Source of the DNA: Thiogranum sp. | GTDB taxonomy: Bacteria > Pseudomonadota > Gammaproteobacteria > DSM-19610 | Direction: 5' to 3' | DNA length: 34,594 nt | Assembly (NCBI GenBank): GCA_022340245.1 | Contig: JAJDOI010000142.1 | Location: 1-34,594 of the forward strand | Shown here: positions 28,416 through 34,594 of the stretch, piece by piece | Position numbering within the stretch: the stretch's first letter is position 1 | How the letters are laid out: every line of letters starts with the position of its first letter | The notes under the pieces: generated by a model | Told to the model about the DNA's origin: nothing | What the model saw: only the letters and a program-made list of their open reading frames with translations | Database searches by the model: none | Program-made: the position numbers and the translations under genes

Positions 28416-29246
28416 ATGTGGGAACGACTGCGCGAAGACCTTGATTGTGTGTTCGAACGCGACCCGGCGGCGCGCACGCGCTTCGAAGTGATCACCACCT
28501 ATCCCGGCTTTCATGCGGTGCTGGCGCACCGCCTCAGTCACCGTCTCGCGGCCAACGGGCTGCCCTGGCTGGCGCGCATTATCTCCAATATCGCCCGCTG
28601 GTTTACCGGCATTGAAATCCACCCCGGGGCGAAAATCGGCCGGCGTTTCTTTATCGATCACGGTATGGGTGTGGTGATCGGGGAAACGGCTGAAATCGGC
28701 GACGACTGCACCTTGTATCACGGCGTCACGCTGGGTGGCACAACCTGGGAAAAGGGCAAACGCCACCCGACACTGGGCAACGACGTGGTGATCGGTGCCG
28801 GTGCCAAGGTGCTGGGCCCCATTCATATCGGCGACGATGTGCGCATCGGTTCGAACGCAGTGGTGGTCAAGGACGTGCCCCCGGGGGCTACCGTCGTAGG
28901 GGTGCCGGGGCGCGTGGTGACGGGCGGCGCGGACGAACAGCAGCTGCGGCGCGACGCCATTGCCCGGAAAATGGGTTTCGACGCCTACGGCAGCACCAGG
29001 GACGCCCCGGACCCGGTTGCCAATGCGATCAACAACATGCTCGATCACATTCACGTGATGGACAAACGCCTGGACGATATGTGCCGCGGGTTGAAGAGCC
29101 TGGGCGCGGAAGTGGGCGACCTGAAGATGCCTGATCTCGACGCCTGCGAGCTGGACAGCGCCTGTACCACGGAAGCCATTGAAACCGGCGAGGAAACCGA
29201 CGACGAGGCGGGAAAACCCCTGACATCCGATCCGGATAATTCTTGA
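28416..29246 (+). CDS. cysE: Serine O-acetyltransferase
   Basis: The 276-residue protein has an N-terminal helical domain and the left-handed beta-helix of hexapeptide repeats: [69 protein letters not shown] and [23 protein letters not shown] motifs of the active site ([14 protein letters not shown]) are present. It makes O-acetylserine for cysteine synthesis and so supplies the cysteine used by IscS. The C-terminal part (about 190-276) is longer than in short plant-like forms and ends in an acidic tail. The ATG at 28416 lies 30 nt after a TATAGT (28381-28386) that may be a -10. The stop codon overlaps the IscR operator. Confidence 0.95.
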
Positions 29247-29263
29247 CTAATTTAGTAGGGTAT
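29239..29263 (+). promoter_or_regulatory. IscR type 1 box and -35 region of the isc operon
   Basis: These 25 bases match the E. coli type 1 IscR consensus (ATASYYGACTRwwwYAGTCRRSTAT) at all but two positions, 29241 and 29257. The TTGACT at 29243-29248 is a good -35. The -10 is less clear. A second TTAGTCA (29270-29276) mirrors the TGACTAA at 29244-29250. Holo-IscR would repress the operon here. The site overlaps the cysE stop codon. Confidence 0.82.
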
Positions 29264-29309: not shown

Positions 29310-29807
29310 ATGAGATTGACCAGCAAGGGTCGCTACGCGGTTACCGCGATGTTGGATCTCGCATTACACGTTCATGAGGGGCCCGTCACGCTGGCGGGTA
29401 TCTCGGAGCGTCAGGGGATTTCCCTGTCTTATCTGGAGCAGTTGTTCACGCGGCTGCGCAAGCACGGGCTGGTCACCAGTACCCGCGGACCGGGCGGGGG
29501 CTATTCGCTCAGTCGTGCCGCGCAGGACATCGCCGTGTCCGAGGTGGTGAGTGCGGTAGACGAGAGCGTTGATGCGACCCGCTGTGGGGGTCGTGGAGAC
29601 TGCCATGACGGCCGGCGTTGCCTGACGCACGAACTCTGGGCCGAATTGAGCGAGCAGATCCACAGCTTTTTGAGCGATATCAGTCTGGGTGATCTGGTCG
29701 AGCACGGCAAGGCCGGACAGGCTCCCCCGGAGGCAGGCCGCAGCCGCGGGACAGACGTCGACGTGGTGTTGAAGGGATCCGCCAACCGGCGTATCGACGC
29801 TGTCTGA
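29310..29807 (+). CDS. iscR: Fe-S cluster-sensing transcriptional regulator IscR
   Basis: The 165-residue Rrf2-family protein has the winged helix-turn-helix [20 protein letters not shown] and [19 protein letters not shown], and the wing [11 protein letters not shown]. The [2Fe-2S] ligands are C92, C98 and C104 with H107 ([21 protein letters not shown]), identical in spacing to E. coli IscR. It represses isc when it holds a cluster and adopts an apo form that regulates type 2 sites. It has a near-consensus type 1 box at its own promoter. It is followed after 105 nt by iscS; that gap contains several short GC palindromes such as CCCCGGGG but no other gene. Confidence 0.98.
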
Positions 29808-29912: not shown

Positions 29913-31133
29913 ATGACTGTGAGAACTCCGATTTACCTTGATTATTCAGCGACCACGCCGGTCGATCCGCGGGTTGCGGAAAAGATGTGCAGCTACCTGA
30001 CGCCGGCCGGTGAGTTCGGCAACCCGGCGTCGCGTTCGCACGTGTTCGGCTGGCACGCCGATGCGGCCGTCGAGCAGGCCCGTGCCGACGTCGCGGCGCT
30101 GGTCAACGCCGATCCAAAGGAAATCATCTGGACCAGCGGTGCCACCGAATCGGACAACCTCGCTATCAAGGGCGCGGCTCACTTTTATCAGAAGCAGGGC
30201 AAGCACATTGTCACGGTCAAGACCGAACACAAGGCGGTGCTGGACTCCTGTCGCCAGCTCGAGCGCGAAGGTTACGAGGTCACCTACCTGGAACCGGAGC
30301 CCACCGGCCTGCTCGACCTGGACAAGTTCCAACAGGCGCTGCGCGCCGACACCGTTCTGGTAAGTGTCATGCATGTCAATAATGAGGTGGGTGTCATCCA
30401 GGACATCGCCGCAATCGGCGAGATCTGCCGCGACCGCAAAATCATTTTTCACGTCGACGCCGCGCAGAGCGCCGGCAAAGTGGAAATCGACCTGCAGAAG
30501 ATGAAAGTCGACCTGATGTCGTTTTCCGCGCACAAGGTTTACGGACCCAAGGGCATCGGCGCCCTGTACGTGCGCCGCAAACCGCGTGTACGCCTGGAAG
30601 CGCAGATGCACGGCGGCGGCCACGAGCGCGGCCTGCGTTCGGGCACGCTGGCGACCCACCAGATCGTTGGCATGGGCGAAGCCTTTCGTCTTGCCAGGGA
30701 GGAGATGGCTGCGGACAACGCGCGTCTTCTCAAGCTGCGTAACCGCCTGGTGGAAGGCTTCAAGGATGTCGAGGAAGTCTATATCAACGGCGATCTCGAT
30801 CACCGTATTGCCGGCAACCTGAACATAAGTTTCAATTTCGTCGAGGGTGAAAGCCTGATCATGGCACTGAAAGACCTGGCGGTTTCATCAGGTTCGGCCT
30901 GCACCAGTGCGAGTCTGGAGCCTTCCTACGTGCTGCGCGCGCTGGGACGCAATGACGAACTGGCGCACAGTTCCATCCGCTTCACGATCGGCCGCTTTAC
31001 CACCGAAGAGGAAATCGACTACACCATTGAACTGGTGAAAAGCAAGATCGGCAAACTGCGCGATCTTTCGCCCTTGTGGGAAATGTACAAGGATGGCATC
31101 GACCTCAACAGCGTCCAGTGGGCGGCGCACTAG
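29913..31133 (+). CDS. iscS: Cysteine desulfurase IscS
   Basis: The 406-residue class I cysteine desulfurase is complete: [15 protein letters not shown] at the N-terminus, [17 protein letters not shown] lysine K208 in [13 protein letters not shown], and the persulfide cysteine C330 in [14 protein letters not shown]. It ends in NSVQWAAH, like the E. coli protein. It removes sulfur from cysteine and hands it to scaffold IscU, ThiI, TusA and others. The start ATG is preceded by AGG-rich bases. The next gene is iscA after 9 nt, whereas iscU is expected here. Confidence 0.98.
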
Positions 31134-31142
31134 GGGGCAGGC

Positions 31143-31466
31143 ATGGCGATTACCATGACAGACGCCGCGGCCGAACGCGTCAGGGATTTTCTGCAAAAGC
31201 GTGGCAGGGGCATCGGCCTGCGACTCGGCGTACGCACCTCGGGCTGCTCCGGTATGGCCTATGTGCTGGAGTTTGTCGATGACGTCGAAGACACCGACCT
31301 GGTGTTCGAAGACCACGGTGTGAAGGTCATCGTCGATCAGAAAAGCATGGTGTACATCGATGGAACCGAGCTGGATTTCGCCAAAGACGGGTTGAACGAG
31401 GGCTTCAAGTTCAACAACCCGAACGTCAAGGACGAGTGTGGTTGCGGCGAAAGCTTCAATGTCTGA
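31143..31466 (+). CDS. iscA: A-type Fe-S carrier IscA
   Basis: The 107-residue protein is nearly collinear with E. coli Isc[39 protein letters not shown], and [24 protein letters not shown]. Cysteines C35, C99 and C101 are the cluster or iron ligands. A-type carriers receive clusters from scaffolds and pass them to [4Fe-4S] apoproteins. It directly follows iscS with a GGGGCAGG ribosome site. A short GC hairpin and a 90-nt gap separate it from hscB. It is not IscU: the IscU cysteine and LPPVK signatures are absent. Confidence 0.98.
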
Positions 31467-31507: not shown

Positions 31508-31527
31508 ATCCCCGCGCAAGCGGGGAT
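31508..31527. repeat. REP-like palindrome between iscA and hscB
   Basis: ATCCCCGC (31508-31515) pairs with GCGGGGAT (31520-31527) around GCAA, followed by TCTTCG. Such CCCCGC-GCAA-GCGGGG palindromes are frequent as dispersed repeats in proteobacterial genomes. The core is similar to the terminator at 22925-22950. It may trim or stabilise the isc transcript between iscA and hscB. Confidence 0.55.
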
Positions 31528-31556: not shown

Positions 31557-32102
31557 ATGCCGTCGATACTGACGCAGAATTATTTTCAGCTGTTTTCGTT
31601 GCCCGAGCGCTACCACCTCGAGCGTGCCGAGCTGGACGCCCGCTATCGGGATTTGCAGCGGCGCGTGCACCCGGACCGGTTTGCCAGTGCGGGTGACCAG
31701 GAGCGGCGTGTGTCCATGCAGCAGGCCGCGCAGATCAACGAGGCTTTCGAGACCTTGAAGGATCCGCTGCGGCGTGGGCGTTACCTGCTCGAGCTGCGTG
31801 GTGCGCCCGCCGAAGAGCAGCAGGGCAGTCACCAGGACCCGGAGTTTCTCATGCAGCAGATCGAGCTGCGCGAGGCGCTGGTCGAGGTGCGCGGCCAGCC
31901 CGACCCGCTGGCTGCGCTGGACCGCTTGTCGCGGGATATCCGCGCGCAGTACCAGGCGCTGGAATCGGCTCTGGAGACCGCCCTGGATGACAGCGCCGAT
32001 ATACAGGCAGCGCTTACATTTGTACTGAGAATGCAGTACTTTACGCGCCTGCAAAATGAAGTGCAGGAACTGGAAGCTGACCTCGAAGACGAGATGTTCT
32101 GA
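31557..32102 (+). CDS. hscB: Fe-S assembly J-protein HscB
   Basis: The 181-residue protein has an N-terminal J domain with HPD at 38-40 (RRVHPDRFA) and the family pattern NYFQLFSLPERYHLERAELDARYRDLQ. The C-terminal three-helix part (DPEFLMQQIELREAL and LTFVLRMQYFTRLQNEVQELE) binds IscU in E. coli. It delivers IscU to HscA and stimulates its ATPase. The ATG at 31557 (MPSILTQ) is preferred over an earlier in-frame start at 31491 because the family begins at this point. A weak ribosome site is seen. Confidence 0.96.
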   Translation: MPSILTQNYFQLFSLPERYHLERAELDARYRDLQRRVHPDRFASAGDQERRVSMQQAAQINEAFETLKDPLRRGRYLLELRGAPAEEQQGSHQDPEFLMQQIELREALVEVRGQPDPLAALDRLSRDIRAQYQALESALETALDDSADIQAALTFVLRMQYFTRLQNEVQELEADLEDEMF

Positions 32103-32172: not shown

Positions 32173-34047
32173 ATGGCACTACTACAGATATCCGAACCCG
32201 GCGAGAGCACCGCGCCGCACGAGCACCGGCTTGCCGCGGGCATAGACCTCGGCACCACCAACTCCCTGGTCGCAAGCGTGCGTAGTGGCGCCGCGCAAAC
32301 CCTGCCAGACGCCGCAGGCGGACACCTGTTGCCCTCGGCGGTGCGCTACCTGGAAAACGGTGACCACATTGTCGGTGCCGAGGCCAGGGCGCAGGCCGCT
32401 GTCGACCCCTCGAATACCATCGTTTCCGTGAAGCGCTTCATGGGCCGTGGTGTTGCGGACGTCAAACGCCTTGGCGCCTCACTGCCCTATGATTTTGTCG
32501 CCGGCGAGTCCGGCATGCCCTTGATTCGCACCGTTGCCGGTGACCGCAGCCCGGTGCAGGTATCGGCCGACATACTGAGCGAACTCAAGCAGCGCGCCGA
32601 ACAAACGCTGGGCGGTGAGCTTGCCGGCGTGGTTATCACCGTGCCCGCTTATTTCGACGATGCCCAGCGCCAGGCTACCAAGGATGCGGCGACGCTGGCG
32701 GGCCTGAAAGTGCTGCGCCTGTTGAACGAGCCCACCGCGGCTGCGGTCGCCTACGGACTGGATCGTGCTTCCGACGGCGTTATTGCTGTCTACGATCTGG
32801 GTGGCGGTACCTTCGACATTTCCATCCTGCGGCTCAATCGCGGCGTGTTTGAGGTCATGGCCACGGCCGGCGACACGGCGCTGGGCGGTGACGACATGGA
32901 TCACCGGGTTGCCGAATGGATCATGGCGCAGGCGGGTATCGGGGAGGATCCGGGCCGCCACCTGCAGCGTCGTTTGATGCATGCGGCCTGTGCGGCCAAG
33001 GAAACGCTGACCGCGCAGGCCTCGGTCGACATCGCCATCGACCTGGACGATGGCAGTCGCTGGCAGGGCGTGCTCACCCGCGAGCTGATGGATAGCCTGA
33101 TCGAGCCGCTGATAAGAAAGACGCTGGCGCCGTGCCGGCGGGTGCTGCGCGATGCCGGTATCTCGGTTGACGACGTGCACGACATCGTCATGGTCGGCGG
33201 TTCCACGCGGGTGCCGAAGGTGCGCGCCATGGTGGGCGAGTTTTTCGGCCGCCAGCCGCTGGTCGACATCGACCCCGACAAGGTAGTGGCGGTCGGCGCC
33301 GCGGTGCAGGCCGACATACTCGCGGGCAACAAGCCGGAAGACGAAATGCTGCTGCTCGATGTGATTCCCCTGTCGCTGGGCATCGAGACCATGGGCGGCC
33401 TGAGCGAAAAGATTATCCCGCGCAACACCACCATTCCGGTGGCGCGCGCCCAGGAGTTCACCACCTTCAAGGACGGACAGACCGCGATGGCACTGCACGT
33501 GGTGCAGGGCGAACGCGAACTGGTCGAGGCCTGTCGGTCGCTGGCGCGTTTCGAACTGCGCGATATTCCTCCCATGGCGGCGGGAGCGGCGCGCATCCGG
33601 GTGACTTGCCAGGTGGATGCCGACGGCCTGCTGAGCGTGACGGCCGAAGAGCGCACCAGCGGCGTACAGGCACACATAGTAGTCAAACCGTCTTATGGCC
33701 TGACGGACAACGAAATCGAATCGATGCTGCAGGCCTCCATGGAGCACGCCCAGGGTGACATGCAGGCGCGGCGTCTGCGCGAGCAGCAGGTGGAGGCCGA
33801 CCGCGTGCTGGAGGCACTGCAGGCGGCGCTGCAACAGGATGCCGATCAGTTTCTCGATGCCCAAGAGCGCGGAGCCATCGATGCGGCGGCCGGGACACTG
33901 GCGCGCGCGCGCGCCGGCGATGACCACAAGGCCATCAAGGCGGCGATCGAGCAACTGGAAGCGGCCAGCGCCGTCTACGTTGACCGGCGCATGAATGCCA
34001 ATATCCAGAAAGCCATGACCGGCCACGCCGTGGATGAATTCAAATAG
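32173..34047 (+). CDS. hscA: Fe-S assembly Hsp70-type chaperone HscA
   Basis: The 624-residue protein begins [20 protein letters not shown], just like E. coli HscA, and has the Hsp70 nucleotide-binding motifs [47 protein letters not shown] and [15 protein letters not shown]. The substrate domain starts near [19 protein letters not shown]. It binds the LPPVK motif of IscU and drives cluster release together with HscB. The start is 70 nt downstream of the hscB stop. Its substrate gene, iscU, is not in this operon. Confidence 0.98.
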
Positions 34048-34058
34048 GTTAAAGCAGC

Positions 34059-34397
34059 ATGCCGCAGATTATTTTCCTGCCCCACGAAGAAATCTGTCCC
34101 GAAGGGGCAGTGATACAGGCCGAGCCCGGTACCACAATCTGTGATGCCGCGCTGGCCAACGGTATCGAGATCGAACACGCCTGCGAGAAGTCCTGTGCCT
34201 GTACTACCTGCCATGTCTACGTGCGCGAAGGACTCGAGTCACTCGAGGAATCCGACGAGGGCGAAGACGATATGCTCGACAAGGCCTGGGGGCTGGAGCC
34301 CGATTCGCGCCTGAGCTGCCAGGCGAAGGTCACCGAACGGGACCTGGTGGTCGAGATTCCGAAATACACCATCAACATGGTCAGTGAAAATCATTAG
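34059..34397 (+). CDS. fdx: ISC-type [2Fe-2S] ferredoxin
   Basis: The 112-residue protein matches E. coli Fdx: HEEICPEGAVIQAEPGTTICDAAL, then the cluster loop HACEKSCACTTCHV with C42, C48 and C51, and the distant C87 in SRLSCQAK. C46 is also present, as in Fdx. It ends IPKYTINMVSENH. It donates electrons for cluster assembly by the ISC system. It starts 11 nt after the hscA stop and ends 11 nt before the iscX start. Confidence 0.98.
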   Translation: MPQIIFLPHEEICPEGAVIQAEPGTTICDAALANGIEIEHACEKSCACTTCHVYVREGLESLEESDEGEDDMLDKAWGLEPDSRLSCQAKVTERDLVVEIPKYTINMVSENH

Positions 34398-34408: not shown

Positions 34409-34594
34409 GTGGGACTGAAGTGGGTGGATTCGCTGGACATCGCCATCGAACTCGACGAGGCGCATCCGGACGTCGATCCGACGCAGGTGCGTTTTACCGA
34501 GTTGCGTGACTGGGTGCTGGCGCTCGACGAATTTGACGACGACCCGGAGCATAGCGGCGAAAAAATACTCGAAGCCATCCAGATGGCGTGGATC
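34409..34594 (+). CDS. iscX: Fe-S assembly protein IscX (partial, C-terminus cut by the window edge)
   Basis: Sixty-two codons are visible from a GTG at 34409, preceded by AGGAGGT. The sequence MGLKWVDSLDIAIELDEAHP, VRFTELRDWVLALDEFDDDP and EKILEAIQMAWI matches IscX of E. coli (66 residues), so only a few residues are missing. IscX binds IscS and iron and modulates sulfur transfer. It closes the isc operon. Confidence 0.95.
   Translation, partial: MGLKWVDSLDIAIELDEAHPDVDPTQVRFTELRDWVLALDEFDDDPEHSGEKILEAIQMAWI

What the first reader, a model, noticed from the sequence alone, without database searches (positions are those of the whole stretch)
31134..31142. isc operon without iscU
iscR, iscS, iscA, hscB, hscA, fdx and iscX are all present in the standard order, but only nine bases separate the iscS stop from the iscA start, so the scaffold gene iscU is missing exactly where it normally lies. 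HscA and HscB exist to act on IscU, and IscS and IscX also bind to it. Either iscU moved elsewhere in the genome, or another scaffold replaces it, or the assembly lost it. The junction is clean: both flanking proteins have intact ends (SVQWAAH; MAITMTD).
Basis: partly seen in the sequence, partly recalled or inferred. Interest (0 to 1): 0.75.

Follow-up and report, generated by a model that had tools for sequence, protein, structure and literature searches.

The report
Scaffold gene iscU moved operons
In this bacterium the gene for the protein on which iron-sulfur clusters are built has left its usual operon and sits elsewhere in the genome, behind a second regulator that has lost its cluster-sensing part; the same split was seen in some other bacterial families, so cells may control scaffold supply separately from the rest of the machine.

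Summary
In detail: iscR-iscS-(9 bp)-iscA-hscB-hscA-fdx-iscX has no iscU. It is neither artefact nor loss. The one IscU-type scaffold found in the genome is intact on contig C92, directly behind an IscR paralog ('IscR2') without the [2Fe-2S] ligands. The own genome and the 15 of 16 congeners in which iscU was found share this layout; the iscS-iscA junction is closed in all 16 genus operons examined. Both loci lie on one contig in two genomes.

In a census of 281 gammaproteobacterial genomes 132 have iscU; in 24 no copy is beside iscS. In 16 of the 24 iscU follows an IscR-type gene: cysteine-less in 13 (six families), three cysteines in 2, unreadable in 1. The SUF core was not found in 16 of 21 genomes retested. 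In the home genome one type-1-like IscR pattern matches exactly only before iscR, iscR2 and sufB.

Best reading: holo-IscR controls these operons together, while IscR2, made with IscU, acts like permanently apo IscR. Relocation is shown; IscR2's action is inferred. My ten paper searches listed no description of it.

The parts
29239..29263 (+). IscR type-1-like site upstream of iscR (ATTCTTGACTAATTTAGTAGGGTAT, 23 of 25 to the E. coli consensus)
   Evidence: consensus printed in PMC3899308 (passages)
29310..29807 (+). iscR (IscR1), cluster ligands present ([16 protein letters not shown])
   Evidence: TIGR02010 211.4 bits, cut-off 207.55; alignment
29913..31133 (+). iscS, complete
   Evidence: TIGR02006 756 bits, cut-off 643.2
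31134..31142 (+). iscS-iscA junction where iscU normally lies; in this genome iscU is at G000:C92:6056-6454, behind iscR2 at C92:5549-6001
31143..31466 (+). iscA
   Evidence: TIGR02011 192.3 bits, cut-off 150.6
31557..32102 (+). hscB
   Evidence: TIGR00714 110 bits, cut-off 46.75; under the cut-off of three narrower HscB models
32173..34047 (+). hscA
   Evidence: TIGR01991 899.3 bits, cut-off 708.55
34059..34397 (+). fdx (isc ferredoxin)
   Evidence: TIGR02007 187.2 bits, cut-off 132.1
34409..34594 (+). start of iscX, cut by the window end
   Evidence: open frame; name recalled, no family search made

Best explanation
iscU left the isc operon and is the second gene of a separate iscR2-iscU locus (HDOD gene - iscR2 - iscU - RibD_C gene). 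SHOWN by sequence: the relocated IscU is a standard, intact, conserved scaffold; the isc operon has closed up behind it; IscR2 is an IscR paralog that keeps the DNA-reading residues, has lost the four cluster ligands and is under strong purifying selection; both operons carry an IscR type-1-like site, and so does sufB; the same architecture occurs in other families. INFERRED: [2Fe-2S]-IscR represses isc, iscR2-iscU and suf through these sites when clusters are plentiful and releases them together when clusters run short, so IscU stays matched to IscS, HscA/HscB and Fdx although its gene is elsewhere. INFERRED, and rated alone at about 0.5: IscR2, made together with IscU, cannot carry a cluster and so behaves like the E. 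coli apo-locked IscR (C92A/C98A/C104A), regulating type-2-like targets or its own operon in step with derepression and not with cluster loading. The split would thus put scaffold supply under a second, cluster-blind layer of control.
For: One IscU in the own genome (PF01592); curated and PDB matches; LPPVK in 60 of 60 IscU compared, with APACGD, YGCGSA and HCS invariant. iscR2 directly upstream of iscU in the own genome, in the 15 of 16 congeners where iscU was found, and in sister-genus G017. iscS-iscA closed in 16 of 16 genus operons examined. Census: 24 of 132 genomes with iscU have no copy within 1 kb of iscS; 16 of the 24 have an IscR-type gene directly upstream of iscU. The three cluster cysteines are absent in 24 of 28 IscR2-type genes (the His too in 23 of these 24; G055 keeps it) and present in 25 of 25 IscR1. 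S40, E43 and Q44 kept in 28 of 28. pN/pS within the genus: IscR2 0.041 and IscU 0.087 (15 genomes each), IscR1 0.132 (6 genomes, a different set). Type-1-like site of at least 19/25 in 25 of 28 IscR2-type upstream regions, with at most 5 of 300 shuffles as good. Own genome: exact pattern hits only before iscR, iscR2 and sufB. SUF core not found in 16 of 21 genomes. Holo/apo behaviour of IscR: passages of PMC12594620, PMC8593673, PMC3899308, PMC5411485.
Against: No expression or binding data for these organisms. The site scores only 16-17/25, no better than shuffles, before the IscR-iscU pair of G145, G110 and G307 (sites reported for P. aeruginosa are 68% and 76% identical to the consensus, so low scores do not exclude a site). 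Two of the 16 dislocated pairs (G229, G307) have an IscR with all three cysteines, and since no IscR1 was seen in the stretches fetched of their isc operons this may be the ordinary IscR that moved with iscU. In 8 of the 24 dislocated genomes iscU has no IscR beside it. Many carriers lack the SUF core, so suf activation cannot be the general role of IscR2. The loop replacing the ligands is invariant in the genus, which suggests more than a dead cluster site. The iscR and iscR2 sites fit the genome-wide pattern by construction; only the sufB hit is independent, and it lies between sufB and a divergent gene.
Confidence: 0.78

Rival explanations
1. Neutral gene shuffling: iscU moved by chance, the moves persist because position hardly matters, and the neighbouring Rrf2 gene has no special role.
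For: Of 24 dislocated cases, 4 have iscU alone and 4 have iscU-iscA (with hscB-hscA where seen) as a block away from iscS. Extra iscU copies without an IscR exist (G102, G129, G199). The IscU tree does not unite the IscR-adjacent copies.
Against: 16 of 24 dislocated iscU follow an IscR-type gene, cysteine-less in six families. The type-1-like site is kept and IscR2 is more constrained than IscU within the genus. The pair is kept in 1.0-1.1 Mb genomes without a SUF core match (family f119).
Confidence: 0.15
2. IscR2 is a holo-mimic: its conserved loop holds the recognition helix in the cluster-bound position without a cluster, so it is a constitutive type-1 repressor that caps isc and its own operon.
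For: The loop AMPARRERIPGEEWPQS is invariant in the own genome, 15 congeners and G017 at about 0.63 synonymous differences per site. iscR2 promoters have type-1-like sites even where no iscU follows (G058, G059, G061, G062). PMC5411485 (passages) proposes that the C92-C98 turn shifts the helix to allow type-1 binding.
Against: E43, which bars apo-IscR from type-1 sites in E. coli, is kept in 28 of 28. The loop is not conserved between families. No structure could be predicted.
Confidence: 0.25
3. Misassembly or binning artefact: iscU was lost at the junction, or contig C92 is a contaminant.
For: The home genome is a 238-contig assembly, 92.42% complete with 3.02% contamination.
Against: Both loci are seen in 14 of 16 congeners and in G017; in G003 and G008 both lie on one contig. 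Protein trees put the C92 IscR2 and IscU inside the genus.
Confidence: 0.01
4. Another scaffold (SUF, NfuA or a NifU) has replaced IscU in the ISC machine.
For: The own genome has two SUF core matches, one of them SufB. Two congeners carry a 51-54% NifU-like match near a NifS-like one (G002, G015).
Against: A standard IscU is present. The SUF core was not found in 5 of 11 genus genomes tested. HscA, HscB and the LPPVK motif are kept.
Confidence: 0.01

Closest known systems
Canonical isc operon iscRSUA-hscBA-fdx-iscX (E. coli, P. aeruginosa)
   Same: All other genes in the usual order; IscR type-1-like site at the promoter.
   Different: iscU is absent and lies in a second, IscR-type operon; iscS and iscA are directly joined.
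E. coli apo-locked IscR (C92A/C98A/C104A, PDB 4HF1)
   Same: Best PDB match of IscR2; recognition-helix residues S40, E43 and Q44 kept; no cluster cysteines.
   Different: A natural, selected paralog with its own conserved loop, encoded with IscU; not a laboratory mutant.
CymR (Rrf2 regulator of cysteine metabolism; clusterless nature recalled)
   Same: Rrf2 protein matched by IscR2 (96.3 bits).
   Different: Far under the CymR cut-off (195 bits); the IscR model scores higher (143.5 bits); sits with iscU.

Membership tests
IscU (ISC scaffold) | Curated IscU model over cut-off | tested here: met
   TIGR01999 225.6 bits, cut-off 192.4
IscU (ISC scaffold) | Three cluster Cys plus His, and the LPPVK site for HscA | tested here: met
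   APACGD, YGCGSA, HCS invariant; LPPVK in 60 of 60; the roles of these residues are recalled
Canonical isc operon | iscU between iscS and iscA | tested here: not met
Canonical isc operon | iscR, iscS, iscA, hscB, hscA, fdx in order under an IscR type-1 site | tested here: met
   the site by consensus match only, binding not tested
IscR (for IscR2) | [2Fe-2S] ligands C92, C98, C104, H107 | tested here: not met
   All four absent in IscR2 of the own genome; cysteines absent in 24 of 28 IscR2-type genes; ligand list from PMC8593673 passages
IscR (for IscR2) | Curated IscR model over cut-off | tested here: not met
   TIGR02010 143.5 bits, cut-off 207.55
IscR (for IscR2) | DNA-reading residues S40, E43, Q44 | tested here: met
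   SY[LIV]EQLF in 28 of 28; residues from PMC5411485 passages
Rrf2 superfamily (for IscR2) | Superfamily model over cut-off | tested here: met
   TIGR00738 104.5 bits, cut-off 73.3; PF02082 101.2 bits, cut-off 30
Apo-IscR-type regulator (works like) | Binds type-2 but not type-1 sites | not testable with these tools
   Needs gel shifts or reporters

The most novel reading that the evidence does not exclude
IscR2-IscU is a dedicated scaffold-control module, old in Gammaproteobacteria: a clusterless IscR paralog whose former ligand loop has become a new input surface (for example for apo-IscU or another Isc protein) reads scaffold supply directly instead of cluster content. Lineages have repeatedly handed iscU over to this module and deleted it from the isc operon, through a two-copy stage still seen in sister genus g3 (two iscU copies sharing a core in G018; a truncated canonical iscU in G019).
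Probability: 0.25. Interest if true: 0.8.

Novelty: new variant of a known kind. Interest (0 to 1): 0.6.

Why it matters
The isc operon is usually treated as one regulatory unit in which IscR senses clusters made on IscU. Here the scaffold, the part on which IscR itself depends for its cluster, is encoded with an IscR-type protein that lacks cluster ligands, and this is found again in other families, including small genomes without a SUF core match. It offers a natural counterpart of the apo-locked IscR mutants and a test of whether scaffold dosage is controlled apart from desulfurase and chaperones. It also warns that reading operons alone will call IscU missing in such genomes.

Tried and rejected
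Assembly or binning artefact: rejected by congeners and single-contig genomes. Replacement by SUF or NifU: rejected. Recent duplication of the host's own iscR: not supported, since 22 of 25 IscR1 form one clade (97/87) without any IscR2; three IscR1 rows (G057, G156, G028) fall outside it, and with the cluster columns left out all 25 as one clade are not rejected (AU p 0.119). One origin of the cysteine-less proteins is neither shown nor rejected (AU p 0.289). The IscU tree does not unite the IscR-adjacent copies (8 changes, at least 2 forced by starred branches); gene conversion may hide the history. suf activation as the general role of IscR2: rejected because 16 of 21 genomes tested had no SUF core match. 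A leader peptide upstream of iscR2: the frame is not kept across the genus. A first class survey with a joined query had a cut match list and was used for leads only. Structure prediction of IscR2 was never run.

Literature: ten answered searches listed no paper that by title or abstract start describes an isc operon whose iscU sits with a clusterless IscR. I saw listings, and passages only of six papers: PMC12594620, PMC8593673, PMC11559095, PMC3899308, PMC4169559, PMC5411485. Subscription papers are mostly not in the library.

Full report
OBSERVATION. The window (contig C149 of a 238-contig, 3.41 Mb genome) carries a trmJ-like gene, cysE, iscR, iscS, iscA, hscB, hscA, fdx and the start of iscX on the + strand (trmJ, cysE and iscX named from memory). 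iscS ends at 31133 and iscA starts at 31143; there is no iscU between them. Both flanking proteins are complete.

WHERE IscU WENT. A search of the whole genome with PF01592 gives one match, on contig C92: a 133-aa IscU over the curated cut-off, closest in the PDB to bacterial IscU/NifU-like scaffolds, with LPPVK and the Cys/His motifs. Directly upstream lies a 151-aa Rrf2 protein, here IscR2, preceded by an HDOD-domain gene; a RibD_C-domain gene follows iscU.

GENUS. Titles of records with close IscR2 matches name Thiogranum sp., Thiohalobacter sp. or only Gammaproteobacteria; I call the genus Thiogranum on that ground. Of 16 congeners, 15 have a close IscU match (the exception, G005, is 79% complete). 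In these 15 and in sister genus G017 iscU follows IscR2. The iscS-iscA junction was seen in 15 of the 16 congeners plus the own genome; G006 has iscS split over two contigs. So both loci were seen in 14 congeners. Gaps are -1 to 19 nt; in three genomes the iscS stop overlaps the iscA start by one base. G003 (71% complete) and G008 (100% complete) are single contigs and show both loci.

INTERMEDIATES. In sister genus g3, G018 has iscU pieces at three places: iscS-iscU-speE-like-RibD on C57, iscR2-iscU cut after residue 53 at the end of C2, and iscU from residue 87 followed by iscA at the start of C37. This is best read as two copies that share a core and tangle the assembly. In G019 the iscU after iscS loses homology after about residue 108 and iscA begins inside the residual frame, while an intact iscU 3' end lies on another contig, before a speE-like gene and a RibD gene. 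Either assembly could be in error. G057 has iscR2-iscU-RibD and iscS-iscA 42 nt apart. Further out, G058, G059 and G062 keep iscS-iscU-iscA and have iscR2 without iscU. Thiohalobacter thiocyanaticus (G061) has iscR2 but no IscU match and only a 41% IscS-like match, and has SUF.

CENSUS. IscU was sought in 281 genomes of the class, drawn evenly, at least 95% complete except the own one (E up to 1e-44): 144 places in 132 genomes. IscS was sought in the same set. iscU lies within 1 kb of iscS in 108 genomes; in 24 no copy does (for one, G281, no IscS row was listed). Contexts of the 24: 16 have an IscR-type gene directly upstream, of which 13 lack the cluster cysteines (families f1, f130, f50, f119, f84, f54), 2 have all three (f114, f155; possibly the ordinary IscR moved along, since none was seen in the fetched part of their isc operons) and 1 (G304) is unreadable there; 4 have iscU without an IscR (f58, f85); 4 have iscU-iscA, with hscB-hscA where seen, away from iscS (f90, f82, f7). 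In 15 of the 16, iscS-iscA is closed (2 to 103 nt outside the genus); in G156 the contig ends inside iscS. Eight further genomes have a far second iscU besides an adjacent one: two follow a cysteine-less IscR (G224, G055), two an IscR with two or one of the cysteines (G309, G233), three none (G102, G129, G199), one is a second isc block (G276).

IscR2. The cysteines C92, C98 and C104 are absent in 24 of 28 IscR2-type genes (the His too in 23 of the 24; G055 keeps it) and present in 25 of 25 IscR1. The 28 include 4 genes without iscU behind them and 4 second-copy loci. The recognition-helix residues S40, E43 and Q44 are kept in all 28. The best PDB match is the E. coli apo-locked triple-alanine IscR (PMC8593673 passages). 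In the tree 22 of 25 IscR1 form one clade and the IscR2 of f1, f130, G057 and the Thiohalobacter group another (15 rows, 99/96), so IscR2 looks like an old paralog, though AU tests leave room. Within the genus pN/pS is 0.041 for IscR2 and 0.087 for IscU (105 pairs each) and 0.132 for IscR1 (15 pairs from 6 genomes). The loop that replaces the ligands, AMPARRERIPGEEWPQS, is invariant in the own genome, 15 congeners and G017.

SITES. The best match to the type-1 consensus (printed in PMC3899308, passages) scores 23/25 before iscR in the window and 23/25 before iscR2; 1000 random 250-bp window stretches gave at most 18 apart from the site itself. At least 19/25 is reached in 25 of 28 IscR2-type upstream regions, with at most 5 of 300 shuffles as good; G145, G110 and G307 score 16-17. 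A relaxed 21-bp pattern, which fits iscR and iscR2 by construction, matches the whole home genome exactly at three places, iscR, iscR2 and about 126 bp before sufB (between sufB and a divergent gene), and with one mismatch before queD-folE2; the backwards control gave none.

MECHANISM. [quoted passage not shown] apo-IscR acts at type-2 sites, and E43 bars it from type-1 (PMC12594620, PMC8593673, PMC3899308, PMC5411485; passages). IscU depletion in P. aeruginosa raises IscS, as expected through IscR (PMC11559095, passages). From this I infer that isc, iscR2-iscU and, where present, suf are released together when clusters are short, and that IscR2 then adds an apo-IscR-like activity independent of cluster supply. 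The SUF core was not found in 5 of 11 genus genomes tested (G004, G006, G009, G011, G016), nor in 16 of the 21 genomes, so IscU is probably the only scaffold there and suf cannot be the only target of IscR2.

ORIGIN. A speE-like gene follows iscU in G076 (Pfam match) and, by eye, in G018, G019 and G224, and follows iscR2 in G058 and G061. This hints at one old iscR2-iscU-speE locus with later losses on either side. The IscU tree is too weak to decide.

LIMITS. No expression, binding or structure data; most genomes are drafts without names; counts depend on the even draw over families; family codes are those of the tool.

Noticed in passing
L109:4919-6337 (G051:C129): IscU of an unrelated gammaproteobacterium is a 473-aa frame interrupted by an intein-like insert (starts CLVSNSQI, ends SHN) directly before the Cys of the YGCGSA motif; weak Hint-domain matches under the Pfam cut-offs. 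A search for iscU plus intein listed six papers, none about it by title.
   Followed up: partly
L069:5001-5453 and alignment A2: The loop replacing the cluster ligands in IscR2 is invariant in the genus, and many IscR2 end in -SAA or -AA, resembling a ClpX-type tail (recalled).
   Followed up: partly
L110:5480-5548: A small hairpin in the 5' leader of iscR2 is kept in the genus (16 of 17 available leaders folded; 9 pairs, one with changes on both sides; covariation term about zero).
   Followed up: partly
L193:1501-1521 (G000:C175:13106-13126): Exact type-1-like IscR site about 126 bp upstream of sufB, whereas the E. coli suf site is described as type 2.
   Followed up: partly
L194:1501-1521 (G000:C163:7676-7696): One-mismatch type-1-like site between the end of dxs and queD-folE2.
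   Followed up: partly
window 31508-31527: Inverted repeat ATCCCCGCGCAAGCGGGGAT between iscA and hscB, read by eye.
   Followed up: no
L033-L045 and L048 (genus and sister-genus isc operons): 11 of 16 genus operons, and G017, carry a second, 37-41% identical cysteine desulfurase between iscR and iscS; the window does not.
   Followed up: no
L082 (Thiohalobacter thiocyanaticus Hrh1, G061): Cultured relative with IscR2 but no IscU match and no close IscS; SUF is present, so IscR2 can outlive ISC.
   Followed up: partly
L107:4652-5020 (G019:C271): iscU after iscS loses homology after about residue 108 and iscA starts inside the residual frame, while an intact iscU 3' end lies on another contig.
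   Followed up: partly
G002:C111 and G015:C95: NifU-like proteins (51-54% to IscU) near NifS-like desulfurases in two congeners, besides the relocated iscU.
   Followed up: no
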